Position numbers and translations under genes: made by a program | The notes under the pieces: model-generated | What the model saw: the letters and a program-made list of their open reading frames with translations, nothing else | Told to the model about the DNA's origin: nothing | The model's database searches: none | In this document: positions 57,815 through 63,434 of the stretch, in pieces | How positions within the stretch are numbered: position 1 is the stretch's first letter | Layout of the letters: the number at the start of each line of letters is the position of its first letter | NCBI GenBank assembly: GCA_021774795.1 | Contig: JAJFIR010000031.1 | Location: 62,001-126,000, forward strand | DNA: 64,000 nucleotides | Source of the DNA: Emcibacteraceae bacterium | GTDB lineage: Bacteria; Pseudomonadota; Alphaproteobacteria; Sphingomonadales; Emcibacteraceae | Direction of reading: 5' to 3'

Positions 57815-59986
57815 TTAGAATGTTCCTTGCAATGTTAATTTGTATACGCGTTGTTGAGACGCTTCTCTGAACTCATTAAAATTGACATTACCCGCCGAAA
57901 TATTTCCTAAATATTTGGTTTTCTGATAGGCCGTTTTTGCTTTGAATATGTTTCTTAAATCAAACCTGACTTTCATATTTCCAAATACTTTCTGTTCGAC
58001 ATAAAAGGACGCTTTCGGGTTAATCGTTTGTTCCCATTGCTCGGTGACATCAGTTCTAAATCCAATGCTCGTACCAGACAGACCCGAAGATGGCGCCTTA
58101 TTCGTTACATTAAATCCGTATGACGTACCCATCTCCACTAAATCATGCTGGAAATTTAAAAGCCATTCATGTTTTTGCTTATAAATAATAGGCCGTTCAA
58201 TAAGCAGGAACGGATCATTAGCTTCCGTTTCGCGCAATATATATTTTCCGGTAATAATTGCGTTTGGCAGGCTAATAATTTTAAGCCGCAAGTTTCCGTT
58301 CACCTCCACACCATATTCCTTCGCATCACCAATATTCCCCGGCAATGACTGAGTGGCCAGCTGTGGATCATTAGTCGGATTATTAATCGGATCAGGTTTT
58401 GCTATTTTAGCAATGTGATCGCGGATTTTATTATAAAACGCCTTAACAGAAATTGATCCCTGATCATCTGAGAAACGGTTTTCATATGCTATTGAAAATT
58501 CTAAGCGATCTTCGGGACGTAGCTCCGCATTGCCCGCGTCAACTTCATTGTCTTCCGCATCAAAACTATTGCCAAAATCGACAAAATTCAACTGGCTAAT
58601 TTTTCGCTCAACGGTCGCTCTAATTTGATTTTTCTCGTCTATATCATATCGCAAATTTACGCGCGGTTTCAGATAGAAAAAATTACGGCTGAAATCCTGG
58701 TTCACTGTCACTAAATTATTTGTTTGTGTTATTTTAGACCACTCGGCGTTCAGGGAACTTTGTAAAGATATATTTGATGAAATCGCGTAGTTATGGCTGG
58801 CAAAGGCTTCATAACGAACTTCCCTCACGTCCTGGTCACTTAAGCTTGATAAATTGATAGTTCCATCTGCACGGGTATTGGTATTTGCCGTATCAAAATC
58901 ATTAATGGCTGCTTCGCCCCCAATCTCAATGGTATGCTTTTTAGCAAATATATTCGTTAATGACGATCTTAATATTTTTTCTCCATGCCTAATTTGAAAA
59001 AGATTCTCACCCGTTCCTGTAAGTGCATTCTCGTTTAAAGCACGAGAAAAAACGTTATTAATGTCATGTTTACCGTGATTGATCACGAAAAGAGTTTTAA
59101 GCAAGCCCAGTTCTTCAAATCGATGTTGATAATCGCCTCCAAATTCCCAGTGCAATGGTTTATGGGTTTGGTCCCTGACAACTAAATTCTGATCCCCTGC
59201 TAAGAGTAAACTTTGATTATCTGTTTCAATAGTATCTTGATCATCAAATTCGAGTTGACCATTCAAACGCAATATATCGCCATTTTCTGCGTTATATTCT
59301 ACGTTACTATTAAGAAATATTTTCTCTCTATCTCGAATATTTGATAAAGAATTATTCTCAAATTGCGTACCTGATGCATTAAAAAAGCTATCCGAAAAGT
59401 TTCTCCGCGTCTCTTCAAGTGCAAAATCAACCCCCAATAAATACTTCACCCGTCCAAGTTCTCCTGTATGAGTAACTTTTGCAAGCGGGTTTAATTGACC
59501 ATCTTCTGCATACTCACCACCAACTGTCCAAACAGTATTTGATTTGGAAGCTGTTGTTTTCATCACCACATTAATAATCAGCCCCTCACTTTGAACATCC
59601 AAGCCCGCTTTTGTGCCGCGGATCAGTTCAATGTGACTAACCGAGGTCGCCTGAATGCGTTTTAATTGAAGACCAAGTGAGTTAGTCTTGCCCGCAATTC
59701 GTTTCCCATCGATTAATATTTGATCCCCATCTGAACCAAAACCACGATTGGCCCGGCCGGCCAGCTCCTCATCCGCTCGCGCAAGAAGCGCCGCTGTTCC
59801 TGGTACGCTCCTCAACATATCGTGAAGTGTCACTGGCTTATACTGTAAAAAATAGTCTTCATTATAAGTAACAGTCGCAGAATTATTGTCCTGCGCTTCC
59901 TGTGCGTGTAGTTGTGACCCAAGACATAACGCCATAGTCAAAGCGATAATCGAGCTTTTATTCAATGAACTTTTTAAAGACTTCAT
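57815..59986 (-). CDS. TonB-dependent outer-membrane receptor
   Basis: A 723-residue receptor with signal peptide (cut near LHA-QE), a plug domain (LHDMLRSVPGTAAL, then NRGFGSDGDQILIDGKRIAG, VSHIELIRG) and a 22-strand barrel ending in YKLTLQGTF, a C-terminal Phe. The substrate is unknown; no iron-siderophore signature is evident. It lies upstream of nothing in its own direction but shares the strand with the flavin oxidase and MBL genes. Its promoter region contains a 31-bp palindrome at 60066-60096, matching half sites next to the HxlR gene. Confidence 0.9.
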   Translation of the reverse strand: MKSLKSSLNKSSIIALTMALCLGSQLHAQEAQDNNSATVTYNEDYFLQYKPVTLHDMLRSVPGTAALLARADEELAGRANRGFGSDGDQILIDGKRIAGKTNSLGLQLKRIQATSVSHIELIRGTKAGLDVQSEGLIINVVMKTTASKSNTVWTVGGEYAEDGQLNPLAKVTHTGELGRVKYLLGVDFALEETRRNFSDSFFNASGTQFENNSLSNIRDREKIFLNSNVEYNAENGDILRLNGQLEFDDQDTIETDNQSLLLAGDQNLVVRDQTHKPLHWEFGGDYQHRFEELGLLKTLFVINHGKHDINNVFSRALNENALTGTGENLFQIRHGEKILRSSLTNIFAKKHTIEIGGEAAINDFDTANTNTRADGTINLSSLSDQDVREVRYEAFASHNYAISSNISLQSSLNAEWSKITQTNNLVTVNQDFSRNFFYLKPRVNLRYDIDEKNQIRATVERKISQLNFVDFGNSFDAEDNEVDAGNAELRPEDRLEFSIAYENRFSDDQGSISVKAFYNKIRDHIAKIAKPDPINNPTNDPQLATQSLPGNIGDAKEYGVEVNGNLRLKIISLPNAIITGKYILRETEANDPFLLIERPIIYKQKHEWLLNFQHDLVEMGTSYGFNVTNKAPSSGLSGTSIGFRTDVTEQWEQTINPKASFYVEQKVFGNMKVRFDLRNIFKAKTAYQKTKYLGNISAGNVNFNEFREASQQRVYKLTLQGTF

Positions 59987-60065
59987 TTTTATTTTCCTAA
60001 ATTTATTGAAACCTAATTACGGTTAGGTTCCCATTGTTTGTAATTGATATCCATCTGATATTTTT

Positions 60066-60096
60066 GATAGTTACTTGTATAGTACAAGTAACTATC
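60066..60096. promoter_or_regulatory. 31-bp perfect palindrome, probable HxlR operator
   Basis: Arms GATAGTTACTTGTA and TACAAGTAACTATC, 14 bp each and perfect, around a TAG centre. It lies 80 bases before the TonB receptor start. Its core TTACTTG-N7-CAAGTAA recurs, with the same seven-base spacer, twice between the MBL and HxlR genes (62927-62947 and 62964-62984). This points to one dimeric regulator, most simply the HxlR protein coded here. Confidence 0.7.
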
Positions 60097-60217
60097 TCTT
60101 AATACGTGGCAGCATAAAAAACTCGTCGTTTTTATTTGAAAAATTATTGCTATTTAAAAATCCGTCCGTCATTAATACGGTGGCAGAGATGAAATATCGG
60201 GTAAATCATATTTGAGC

Positions 60218-61828
60218 TTAACTTTGCGATGCTTGCCCTACTCGCTTATCAATTTCTTCTATCGTCAGCCATGCTGATTCAATGGCTCCCGCCATCCATC
60301 CTGTCAACATAGGTGCCATTGAATCGCCAGTTATAAATACTCGTTTATCGCCTTTAACTAATCGTGGGAATTTATTAGTGCGCATTCGTGCAGACCACGA
60401 ACTCCAACCGCCTAAACTATATTTTGTTTTATGCCAGGCTTTCGATATGAAATTGCCAGTAAAGTGTTTTCGGTATGCTCCCGGGTGAAATTTTTCACCA
60501 ACTGACAGAGCAAACTCCGTGCGTTCAGCTATACTCAAATTACTAAATTGAACTGCGGGCGCAAATAGCACGTAGTTGGCTAATATGACGCCGCCATCAG
60601 CACCAAAAAGATCTGCTGAAGGATAGCTCATCATCATCTGCATTGGGATATCAGACCACGCAACACCGCCATAGATCATATCATCATCTTCCCAGAAACG
60701 ACGGTTCATCTGTACACCCGTTTTAACAGTTGACATCGCGCTGGGACTTTTCAACGCGTCGGTAATTTCTGGATCAAAGTTATTGTTTACTTTATTGATA
60801 ACGGGAAACGGGATCGAAGAAACACAATAATCTGCTTTGGTTTTCGTTTTCTGATTAGTATTTGCATCAATGTATGAGATTTCCACACCATCATCATTTT
60901 GGATGATATCGGTAACCTCTGAATTGAACTTGATCATCTGGGCCGGTAACGCCCCAAATATCGCTTTTGCGATCTGATCCATTCCGCCAACTGCTTGATA
61001 CATCACCGCCGGATGATCAGCGGTTGATCCTTGAGTTCTCAATTTTACTCTTAAAATTTCTGATAAATTATAGGGTTCAGATAAAGCACCAAAATGCTCG
61101 CCTGCACCCGGATAATCACGGTAGCCACGACCCTCATTAGGTTTATATTCAAGGCTTTCTTTATCAATTAGTCCTGAACCCACTAGCTTTTCGACCAGAA
61201 GCTCCGTATCTTCGGGCGTCAAATATTGTTCTAAAGCACCATCATTTGCACATTTAGCCAACAGTTCTGTGATATTTCCCTGTAAATCGGTTTTTAAATC
61301 GATGTTCCTAATTCGCTGCCCGTTTAATGGCCCGGAGCCATTTTCTGTATAATTATAAATCTGCACACATTCATTAATCATTACCTCCAGTTTAACTCCC
61401 AAGGTTCTACAATAATGAAGCGTGGACTTGTGTTCTGCCGGTATGCGCCAGGGCCCAATGTTTAAATATTGATCATGTTCGAAGTTGCAGATTTGTTTTT
61501 CACCGCCAATTTCTTCAATCACTGTTCCTTTTCTCGCACTTTGACATCTGCCTCCGGCAAATTCACGTGCTTCGAGAATTTGGCAATCATATCCTTTTTT
61601 GCTCAGTTCAAGTGCCGTCACCATGCCTGAAATACCCGCCCCAAGAATAATTATTTTCTTTCCATTTCCGTCACTCGACAGTGTGGGTGGTGCTGCTTTT
61701 GTCGATGCTTTACTTATTTCCCAGCCATTCAAAGCTGTCATGACAGCAGCGGAACCGCCAATCATTCCTAATGTTTGTAAGAAGCTTCTTTTAGTGACGG
61801 GTGAATTTTGATTATCACTATTCATCAT
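60218..61828 (-). CDS. Tat-exported flavin monoamine oxidase
   Basis: A 536-residue FAD amine oxidase. The N-terminus carries a Tat-like signal in which the twin arginine is Lys-Arg (TKRSFLQTLGMIGGSAAVM). The FAD-binding motif is KKIIILGAGISGMVTALELS followed by EAREFAGGRCQSA, and the C-terminal FAD site is near KRVFITGDSMAPMLTGWMAG. Related proteins oxidise amines or amino acids. The substrate is unknown. AAGGA lies four to seven bases before two adjacent ATGs (61828, 61825). It stands between the receptor and the MBL-fold gene. Confidence 0.87.
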   Translation of the reverse strand: MMNSDNQNSPVTKRSFLQTLGMIGGSAAVMTALNGWEISKASTKAAPPTLSSDGNGKKIIILGAGISGMVTALELSKKGYDCQILEAREFAGGRCQSARKGTVIEEIGGEKQICNFEHDQYLNIGPWRIPAEHKSTLHYCRTLGVKLEVMINECVQIYNYTENGSGPLNGQRIRNIDLKTDLQGNITELLAKCANDGALEQYLTPEDTELLVEKLVGSGLIDKESLEYKPNEGRGYRDYPGAGEHFGALSEPYNLSEILRVKLRTQGSTADHPAVMYQAVGGMDQIAKAIFGALPAQMIKFNSEVTDIIQNDDGVEISYIDANTNQKTKTKADYCVSSIPFPVINKVNNNFDPEITDALKSPSAMSTVKTGVQMNRRFWEDDDMIYGGVAWSDIPMQMMMSYPSADLFGADGGVILANYVLFAPAVQFSNLSIAERTEFALSVGEKFHPGAYRKHFTGNFISKAWHKTKYSLGGWSSWSARMRTNKFPRLVKGDKRVFITGDSMAPMLTGWMAGAIESAWLTIEEIDKRVGQASQS

Positions 61829-61933
61829 TTTTCCTTAAAAATAAATGTAATGGAACCCGCCCTCTTCTTCGGATGACATTGTGTTTTGTATTATGGGCAA
61901 ACCGTTCCCTACAAACAGCTTGATCTTCGTTAT

Positions 61934-62914
61934 TCAATCCTTCTTCTCTAGGAATATTTTTTGTATGTTAAACGGGTGTAACCCACGGTAGAAATCTGTA
62001 CCGGACAATCCGTCAGGAACTGAAAAACGTTCTTCGAGTGGATTATCAGCAATCGTCTGGTCTAACGTTTTATTGTTATTGTGGGCCTTCGCAACAGTGG
62101 CACTTAAATTACGCAGATAGTCAACATACCTGTTAAAAATTGATGCCGTTGCAGGAATACCATGCCCTGGTATAATAGTATTTATTTCAAGTGTTGCTGC
62201 AAACTTATTAATTGTTTGAATATAGCCACCCGTATCCCCTATCAGAAGAAAAGGTAGTGACCCCTCTCCAAGCACCAGATTGCCGGTCCATGCTGTCTTT
62301 ACAGACGGCAAATATACAACGGTATCACCGAATGTATTACCCGCGCCAAAATGATATAGCTCAACCGAAATGCCACCAAGATCTACTTCCATAAAATCAT
62401 CAAATATGATATCAGGCATTCGGCTTTCTGTGAGCTCGAAAACGCTCATATCGCCTCTAACCATACCTAATGACCCCTTTTTGCGTTGATCCATATCGGG
62501 GCTCATCATTTTTTTTGTGAGCTTATGAGCAATAATTTTTGTTTCGTCCGGAAATGCATAGTTGCCAAACGTGTGATCAGCGTGACCGTTGGTATTCACA
62601 AGATAAAGGATTGGTTTATCCGTTATCGTTCTAACGGCTGATATAATCTGATTGGCCATATTCGCATCAATATGTGCATCAATTACCAGCACACCCTTAT
62701 CACCTACAACGAAGCCCGCATTGTCTGCGGGTGGCCTTGATGATTGTAACGCATAAACATTTGCGCCAATTTGTTCAACGCCCAGTGTTACACCTTCCGG
62801 ATGCAGTGCAGGCGGCACAAATCCCGCAGGAGGTCTTTGGGCTAACGTAGATTGAGCAGCAAGCAATGTGAACAGCGTCGCGAATATAATTTTAATAGAT
62901 ATATTATTGTGCAT
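61934..62914 (-). CDS. exported MBL-fold hydrolase with altered metal ligands
   Basis: A 326-residue metallo-beta-lactamase-fold protein with signal peptide (cut near TLA-QR). The usual HxHxDH is NGHADH here (in LVNTNGHADHTFGN), the third His is Asn (FGAGNTFGDTVVYLP), and the bridging Asp is Asn (WTGNLV); the last His is kept in IIPGHG. At least part of the zinc site is therefore changed. Other family members with NT/GN patterns may exist, so this need not be inactive. The ATG at 62914 is chosen, since the longer frame to 62962 would spoil the signal peptide. It is divergent from HxlR. Confidence 0.82.
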   Translation of the reverse strand: MHNNISIKIIFATLFTLLAAQSTLAQRPPAGFVPPALHPEGVTLGVEQIGANVYALQSSRPPADNAGFVVGDKGVLVIDAHIDANMANQIISAVRTITDKPILYLVNTNGHADHTFGNYAFPDETKIIAHKLTKKMMSPDMDQRKKGSLGMVRGDMSVFELTESRMPDIIFDDFMEVDLGGISVELYHFGAGNTFGDTVVYLPSVKTAWTGNLVLGEGSLPFLLIGDTGGYIQTINKFAATLEINTIIPGHGIPATASIFNRYVDYLRNLSATVAKAHNNNKTLDQTIADNPLEERFSVPDGLSGTDFYRGLHPFNIQKIFLEKKD

Positions 62915-62926
62915 TAAGATACTCTC

Positions 62927-62947
62927 TAGCTTGTTTTTTGCAAGTAA
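62927..62947. promoter_or_regulatory. HxlR half-dyad site 1
   Basis: TAGCTTG, seven bases (TTTTTTG), CAAGTAA. The right half is identical to the right half of the 60066-60096 palindrome, and the CTTG and CAAG are placed at the same seven-base distance. It lies 13 bases before the MBL start codon. Confidence 0.6.
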
Positions 62948-62963
62948 CCAAAAGAGTATCATT

Positions 62964-62984
62964 TAAATTGCTTTTTGCAAGTAA
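62964..62984. promoter_or_regulatory. HxlR half-dyad site 2
   Basis: TAAATTG, seven bases (CTTTTTG), CAAGTAA. Same right half and spacing as site 1; the left half is weaker. Start-to-start distance to site 1 is 37 bases. It ends 18 bases before the HxlR start codon, consistent with control of both divergent genes. Confidence 0.55.
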
Positions 62985-63002
62985 AAAATATAAAATGAAA
63001 TT

Positions 63003-63434
63003 ATGGATAGGAAAAACCGTTCAAATTGTCCGATATCATATGCGTTAGATCTCATTGGTGACAAATGGTCTCTTTTGATATTGAGAGATATTATTCTTAG
63101 GGACAAACACTTTTATAAAGATTTCATCTCATCCGATGAAGCGATCGCAACTAATATTCTTTCAAACAGGCTAAAAATGCTGGAGTACGATGGATTTATT
63201 TCGAAGACACGCGATACAATAGATCGAAAAAGATTTATTTATAACCCTACGGAAAAAGGCCTTGATCTGCTACCTGTTCTCATCGCCACCATGAGGTGGA
63301 GCGATAAATACAGCACAGAAATTAAACAACGCCCTCCTTCCATTGAAATGATTAGAAACGACCCGATAGGGTTTGAAAATCGAATCCGGGCCAAGTTTTC
63401 CAACACACCAACATTACTTGATCGCCATCACTAA
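63003..63434 (+). CDS. HxlR-family transcriptional regulator
   Basis: A 143-residue winged-helix regulator. CPISYALDLIGDKWSLLILR is the HxlR signature, and Cys9 near the N-terminus is the position used for thiol-based sensing in relatives such as YodB and HypR. ISSDEAIATNILSNRLKMLE and KRFIYNPTEKGLDLLPVL follow. It is divergent from the MBL-fold gene. Its probable binding sites are the TTACTTG-N7-CAAGTAA dyads in that region and ahead of the TonB receptor. No strong Shine-Dalgarno precedes the ATG. Confidence 0.88.
   Translation: MDRKNRSNCPISYALDLIGDKWSLLILRDIILRDKHFYKDFISSDEAIATNILSNRLKMLEYDGFISKTRDTIDRKRFIYNPTEKGLDLLPVLIATMRWSDKYSTEIKQRPPSIEMIRNDPIGFENRIRAKFSNTPTLLDRHH

What the first reader, a model, noticed from the sequence alone, without database searches (positions are those of the whole stretch)
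57815..63434. Predicted HxlR regulon: TonB receptor, flavin oxidase, MBL hydrolase
A 31-bp perfect palindrome ahead of the TonB receptor shares its core TTACTTG-N7-CAAGTAA, including spacer length, with two sites between the divergent MBL and HxlR genes. The HxlR protein has a Cys at the thiol-sensing position. The group may import a compound and oxidise and hydrolyse it in the periplasm under redox or reactive-aldehyde control. Substrate and pathway are unknown.
Basis: partly seen in the sequence, partly recalled or inferred. Interest (0 to 1): 0.68.

Follow-up and report, generated by a model that had tools for sequence, protein, structure and literature searches.

The report
HxlR regulon with dehalogenase-like hydrolase
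A small regulator gene in an alphaproteobacterium appears to control itself, an outer-membrane uptake receptor and a zinc enzyme whose active site matches that of a known pesticide-dechlorinating enzyme, which hints at a natural system for taking up or disarming a reactive compound that is still unidentified.

Summary
Within the window the weak dyads are not above chance, but comparison across genomes supports all three as HxlR operators: a dyad with the same 7-nt spacer and at most 2 mismatches precedes 17 of 36 HxlR genes sampled in the order; other spacers give 0-4, shuffles 0.05. It is kept before MBL in all three genus genomes that have MBL, also where MBL and hxlR are not adjacent. The genome's four intergenic exact core dyads all lie at HxlR genes, their neighbours or regulon genes, which adds an unlinked secreted methyltransferase-like gene. 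The flavin oxidase looks like a late insertion. The MBL has the mononuclear Asp-His-Asn-His zinc set plus His114 of chlorothalonil dehalogenase (Chd), also its best fold match (Z 29.7), but lacks Chd's interface zinc site. Thiol or aldehyde sensing is unproven: the Cys is in 34 of 34 relatives. Substrate, inducer and sign of regulation are unknown; no binding was tested.

The parts
63003..63434 (+). HxlR-family regulator gene, single Cys at position 9
   Evidence: PF01638, 51.8 bits; orthologues 69-77% in G022, G029, G026
62964..62984 (.). dyad, 2 mismatches, proximal to hxlR
   Evidence: tandem arrangement shared with other HxlR promoters
62927..62947 (.). dyad, 2 mismatches, proximal to MBL, 37 bp from the previous one
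61934..62914 (-). MBL-fold enzyme with a Chd-type mononuclear zinc site (D113, H114, N212, H251; H111); leader peptide by eye
   Evidence: PF00753; profile hit to 6uxu; residues in 8 of 8 members; fold
60218..61828 (-). flavin amine oxidase, L-amino-acid-oxidase type; accessory, probably inserted
   Evidence: PF01593; best solved relative 2jae, E 1.1e-73; absent from L059 and L070
60066..60096 (.). 31-bp perfect palindrome, operator of the receptor gene; core 60071-60091
57815..59986 (-). TonB-dependent receptor
   Evidence: PF07715 32.1 bits and PF00593 74.3 bits; clade of four, support 100/100

Best explanation
The HxlR protein binds TTACTTG-N7-CAAGTAA dyads and controls its own gene, the divergent MBL gene (with the oxidase behind it), the TonB receptor through its own palindromic operator and, elsewhere in the genome, a secreted methyltransferase-like gene. 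Apart from HxlR, the products look exported or lie in the outer membrane, so the regulon probably handles an outside compound at the envelope: the receptor takes it through the outer membrane, and the MBL hydrolyses it with a single zinc held by Asp-His-Asn-His, as chlorothalonil dehalogenase does. Shown by computation: operator conservation, promoter sites, active-site residues, fold. Inferred: DNA binding, sign of control, export (leaders read by eye, no predictor run), and that the signal is an electrophile. Unknown: the substrate.
For: Dyad with spacer 7 before 17 of 36 HxlR genes at <=2 mismatches, against 0-4 for other spacers and 0.05 in shuffles. Dyads before MBL in 3 of 3 genus genomes with MBL, including G026 where MBL and hxlR are not adjacent. 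Dyads before the receptor in the 3 receptor loci next to hxlR, none in 11 of 11 receptor orthologues elsewhere. MBL remnant between the sites in G022, 84% over 25 residues. Four intergenic exact core dyads in the genome, all at HxlR genes, a HxlR neighbour or regulon genes; one precedes the gene that follows the receptor in G029 and G022. Chd ligands kept in 8 of 8 MBL members; Chd is the best profile hit and fold match.
Against: The loose dyad is not enriched in the genome. Mismatch scores alone are not significant for the G022 receptor sites (3 mismatches, p 0.33) or for the window MBL promoter (p 0.10). 10 of 36 HxlR genes have no such dyad at <=3 mismatches. MBL members outside the genus have no dyad, 0 of 8. 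Promoter scan at chance. Chd's interface zinc pair is not kept. Identity to Chd is about 26%. No binding, expression or activity data.
Confidence: 0.68

Rival explanations
1. The dyad is a general HxlR-family operator, and the receptor or MBL promoters are controlled mainly by another HxlR paralogue, or by several together, so the three genes are not one dedicated regulon.
For: The dyad is family-wide; the genome has five PF01638 matches, one of them partial, and two paralogues have an exact core dyad close by.
Against: hxlR adjoins MBL and receptor in G029 and the receptor in G022. Among 13 genus genomes, a close hxlR (69% or more) was found in four: the three with MBL and G022 with its remnant.
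Confidence: 0.15
2. The MBL is a natural hydrolytic dehalogenase, and the regulon detoxifies or consumes a halogenated electrophile that HxlR senses through Cys9.
For: Chd-type residues and fold; a haloalkane dehalogenase gene about 4 kb beyond hxlR; fusion of two planctomycete MBL relatives to an alpha/beta hydrolase whose solved relatives are haloalkane dehalogenases; GST genes beside related HxlR genes.
Against: The haloalkane dehalogenase has no dyad near it; about 26% identity to Chd does not fix the substrate; the fused hydrolase resembles epoxide hydrolases as well (by eye); no activity data.
Confidence: 0.18
3. The set serves uptake and oxidation of an amino-acid-like nutrient: the receptor imports it and the oxidase deaminates it, with the MBL cleaving a protecting lactone or ester.
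For: The oxidase matches Rhodococcus L-amino acid oxidase (E 1.1e-73), with the carboxylate-binding Arg and Tyr (roles recalled) kept in that alignment; in G028 a receptor of the same clade is followed by another oxidase of the family.
Against: The oxidase is missing from two of three hxlR-linked receptor loci and has no dyad; the two receptor-linked oxidases are not sisters in the tree.
Confidence: 0.2

Closest known systems
HxlR / MarR-DUF24 regulators (YodB, CatR, QsrR, HypR)
   Same: PF01638 fold; conserved N-terminal Cys; YodB and CatR are quinone-responsive repressors that use this Cys (PMC6798810, passages)
   Different: Sits with a TonB receptor and an exported MBL gene rather than reductases or dioxygenases; sensing untested; Cys shared by 34 of 34 relatives
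Chlorothalonil hydrolytic dehalogenase Chd (PDB 6UXU)
   Same: Catalytic zinc ligands Asp116, His117, Asn216, His257 and His114 all matched; best fold match, Z 29.7 over 283 residues, rmsd 2.8
   Different: About 26% identity; interface zinc pair His143/Asp146 not kept; leader peptide and HxlR control; activity unknown
Rhodococcus opacus L-amino acid oxidase (PDB 2JAE; organism recalled)
   Same: Best solved relative of the oxidase, residues 57-532, E 1.1e-73
   Different: Export-type leader by eye; substrate untested; long lone branch in the genus tree

Membership tests
HxlR family | HxlR-type winged helix (PF01638) above cut-off | tested here: met
   51.8 bits against 20.8
HxlR family | Conserved N-terminal Cys | tested here: met
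   Cys9; 34 of 34 relatives whose alignment covers it
HxlR family | Binding to an inverted repeat near its own gene | not testable with these tools
   Candidate operators conserved; binding itself untested
Thiol-switch subgroup (YodB/CatR type) | Inactivation through the Cys by quinones or oxidants | not testable with these tools
   None
Chlorothalonil dehalogenase (Chd) | Mononuclear zinc ligands D116, H117, N216, H257 and His114 | tested here: met
   8 of 8 aligned members
Chlorothalonil dehalogenase (Chd) | Interface structural zinc His143/Asp146 | tested here: not met
   D140 and Q143 in the window protein, variable in the other members
Chlorothalonil dehalogenase (Chd) | Hydrolytic dechlorination of chlorothalonil | not testable with these tools
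   None
Subclass B2 metallo-beta-lactamase | NCBIfam B2 model above cut-off; Cys221, Arg121, His196 (residues recalled) | tested here: not met
   67.6 bits against 240; Asn, His, Asn at those places
Quinoprotein relay zinc metallohydrolase 2 (TIGR04559) | Score above cut-off | tested here: not met
   120.3 bits against 280
L-amino acid oxidase | Flavin amine oxidase domain and substrate-carboxylate Arg and Tyr (roles recalled) | tested here: met
   PF01593 150 bits; both kept in the 2jae alignment
L-amino acid oxidase | Oxidation of an L-amino acid | not testable with these tools
   None
TonB-dependent receptor | Plug and beta-barrel domains | tested here: met
   PF07715 and PF00593 above cut-off

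The most novel reading that the evidence does not exclude
A natural, inducible hydrolytic-dehalogenation regulon: a HxlR electrophile sensor turns on a TonB receptor and an exported Chd-type mononuclear-zinc enzyme that removes halogen from a natural haloaromatic or halonitrile. It would give the pesticide-degrading enzyme Chd a natural counterpart with its own regulator and uptake route, about 4 kb from a haloalkane dehalogenase gene.
Probability: 0.18. Interest if true: 0.82.

Novelty: new variant of a known kind. Interest (0 to 1): 0.56.

Why it matters
It gives a testable operator for HxlR proteins of this order (dyad with fixed 7-nt spacer, in 11 of 36 sampled promoters doubled at 35-40 bp), ties a HxlR protein to an outer-membrane receptor, and points to an uncommon enzyme family (3 of 396 genomes searched in the order, plus Nitrospirae and planctomycete assemblies) that shares the unusual zinc site of a pesticide dehalogenase. 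Finding the regulator's inducer would be a direct way to learn what such an enzyme is naturally for.

Tried and rejected
Loose genome-wide motif count: 17 sites against 26 in the reversed control; kept as evidence against. Promoter and terminator scan: 10 promoter-like sites against 9.6 expected, so no claim on repression or activation. Cys9 as proof of redox sensing: rejected, 34 of 34 relatives have it. Subclass B2 lactamase and quinoprotein-relay hydrolase: below cut-offs, ligands differ. Oxidase as a core member: rejected (no dyad before 11 of 11 oxidase genes scanned). Haloalkane dehalogenase as a regulon member: the only dyads with <=2 mismatches in its 20-kb stretch are the three of the finding. 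The first scan of methyltransferase-like genes used a poor filter and was repeated: 1 of 22 genes has a dyad, two others stand behind the receptor; for one (L171) the ORF start is misplaced, so its promoter was not properly scanned. The named-genome search with the single MBL found nothing; with the alignment it gave 12 loci, several from the same assemblies and two (L125, L126) with the contig lengths of G029 and G026. Plasmid search: 354 records, all below 60% identity; 3 of 15 listed were fetched as controls. Papers: 9 searches. No listed title concerned this dyad or a HxlR-controlled TonB receptor, but PMC5613140, which holds both words, was seen only in the listing. Passages only were read of PMC11633110, PMC12784990 and PMC6798810.

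Full report
What is there. The window holds a HxlR regulator gene (63003-63434, +) and, divergent from it, an MBL-fold gene (61934-62914, -), a flavin amine oxidase (60218-61828, -) and a TonB-dependent receptor (57815-59986, -). The 31-bp palindrome at 60066-60096 is exact and is the only place in the window with perfect arms of 12 bp or more. Two weaker dyads with the same 7-nt spacer lie in the 88-bp gap between MBL and hxlR.

Is it more than chance? By window statistics the weak dyads are not (7 sites at <=3 mismatches, 4.1 expected), and in the genome the loose dyad is not enriched (17 against 26 for the reversed control). I therefore turned to other genomes. Upstream regions (250 bp) of 41 HxlR genes, 36 after removing duplicates, were scanned with the half-site taken from the window. 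At spacer 7, 8, 17 and 26 of 36 had a dyad with at most 1, 2 and 3 mismatches. The other spacers from 0 to 15 gave 0, 0-4 and 0-13; 20 rounds of shuffles at spacer 7 averaged 0, 0.05 and 0.55. Without the three focal loci, 14 of 33 still have it at <=2. These genes were the best hits of a homology search, not a random sample. In 11 of the 36, two dyads (<=3 mismatches) stand 35-40 bp apart, 37 in the window. Ten of the 36 have no such dyad at <=3 mismatches, so the motif is not universal in the family.

Orthologous promoters. In G029 the order is hxlR, divergent MBL-receptor without oxidase; dyads stand before MBL (1 mismatch) and the receptor (2 mismatches). In G022 hxlR and receptor are divergent, and between them lies the last 25 codons' worth of an MBL gene (84% identity, E 6.7e-12), with dyads on both sides; I infer that MBL was deleted. 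The G022 receptor-side sites are 3 mismatches from the consensus and not significant by that score (p 0.33), although one has 10-bp arms with one mismatch. The window's own MBL promoter is also weak by score alone (p 0.10). In G026 hxlR (69-71%) and MBL (61%) lie on different contigs with other neighbours, yet MBL has two 1-mismatch dyads and hxlR its own pair. Of 14 receptor orthologues (66% identity or more) scanned, the 3 next to hxlR have dyads and 11 of 11 others have none. The receptor clade of four is supported 100/100; its fourth member, in G028, has no hxlR or dyad beside it but an oxidase of the family behind it.

An unlinked member. Exact ACTTG-N7-CAAGT occurs 8 times in the genome, against 2 for the reversed control. 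Four lie inside long ORFs. The four others are the receptor site, one just 5' of a HxlR paralogue on C7 (the ORF caller also drew an antisense ORF over it), one before a DUF2461 gene beside another HxlR paralogue on C58, and one about 100 bp before a methyltransferase-like gene at C47:56489 with a leader. Relatives of that gene follow the receptor in G022 (75%) and, by two contig-end matches, in G029 (84%). Of 22 genes of this family scanned, it is the only one with a dyad. The site was not used to define the motif, so I count it as the best single test of the regulon.

The oxidase. Its best solved relative is a Rhodococcus L-amino acid oxidase (E 1.1e-73). It has no dyad, is missing from the G029 and G022 loci, and is a long lone branch in the oxidase tree. 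It is most likely an insertion that now rides on the MBL promoter.

The MBL. The family keeps N-x-H-x-D-H, G-N-T and W-T-G-N where usual MBLs have H-x-H-x-D-H, His and Asp or Cys (the usual pattern is recalled). Its best solved relative is chlorothalonil dehalogenase (profile of 8 members, E 3.9e-44). The published catalytic zinc ligands of Chd are Asp116, His117, Asn216 and His257, with His114 shown in the mechanism (PMC12784990, passages). Counting along the alignment (a constant offset of 27 fits all of them), these are D113, H114, N212, H251 and H111 here, present in 8 of 8 members. Three paralogous MBLs of the genus and three distant plasmid MBLs have Asp at the N212 place. The predicted structure (pLDDT 80.7) matches Chd best (Z 29.7 over 283 residues; next 24.1; B2 lactamases about 21). 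Chd's interface zinc pair is not kept, so I say 'Chd-type site', not 'a Chd'. Matches at E <= 1e-40 were found in 3 of 396 genomes of the order. A pattern-based scan of named genomes gave 12 loci from Alphaproteobacteria, Nitrospirae and Planctomycetota assemblies; among their neighbours are MarR, TetR, CMD and methyltransferase genes, and two are fused to an alpha/beta hydrolase. None of 8 members outside the genus has the dyad.

What turns it on. The seven-member HxlR clade with the window protein (95/92) includes two members of another genus, both divergent from a glutathione S-transferase gene. A more distant HxlR gene of the genus also adjoins a GST gene and four others a GFA gene. This favours an electrophile as signal, in line with YodB and CatR (PMC6798810, passages), but does not prove it. 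About 4 kb beyond hxlR, outside the window, lies a haloalkane dehalogenase with TetR, GST, CMD, MAPEG and GFA genes around it; no dyad is near it, so it may be only a neighbour.

Naming. Named relatives are 'Alphaproteobacteria bacterium' assemblies. I did not establish the order; Sphingomonadales is a guess from recall. I have no evidence on habitat.

Verdict. Substrate, sign of regulation and inducer remain open.

Noticed in passing
L073:7758-12843 (G000:C25; begins at window 63758 and runs beyond the window): A stretch of detoxification-type genes: TetR, GST, CMD, TetR, MAPEG, a haloalkane dehalogenase (E 1.1e-111 to AncHLD5) and GFA, directly beyond hxlR.
   Followed up: partly
L130:7345-9258 and L131:7632-9149: Planctomycete relatives of the MBL fused to an alpha/beta hydrolase domain; in L131 the ORF is cut at the contig end.
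   Followed up: partly
L141:1600-2358 (G000:C47:56489-57244): A methyltransferase-like protein with a leader peptide and an altered glycine motif (by eye), with a HxlR dyad upstream; a periplasmic methyltransferase would lack its usual cofactor.
   Followed up: partly
Receptor and oxidase families across the genus: Both families are multi-copy: 3-12 receptor matches and 1-8 oxidase matches per genus genome; many receptors adjoin a large protein with a cysteine-rich N-terminus, followed by 243-aa and 300-aa genes, probably a molybdopterin oxidoreductase (by eye).
   Followed up: no
L060:9593-13447 (G028:C1): A receptor of the same clade directly followed by a non-sister oxidase of the same family, an independent receptor-oxidase pairing.
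   Followed up: partly
L117 (G029:C3), dyad at 119-139, fragment at 234-416: A second, broken HxlR-like stretch (72% over 64 residues, one stop) with a 1-mismatch dyad upstream.
   Followed up: no
HxlR promoters in L073, L059, L109, L111, L112, L113, L120, L092, L096, L097, L099: Two dyads 35-40 bp apart, perhaps a general operator design of this HxlR group.
   Followed up: partly
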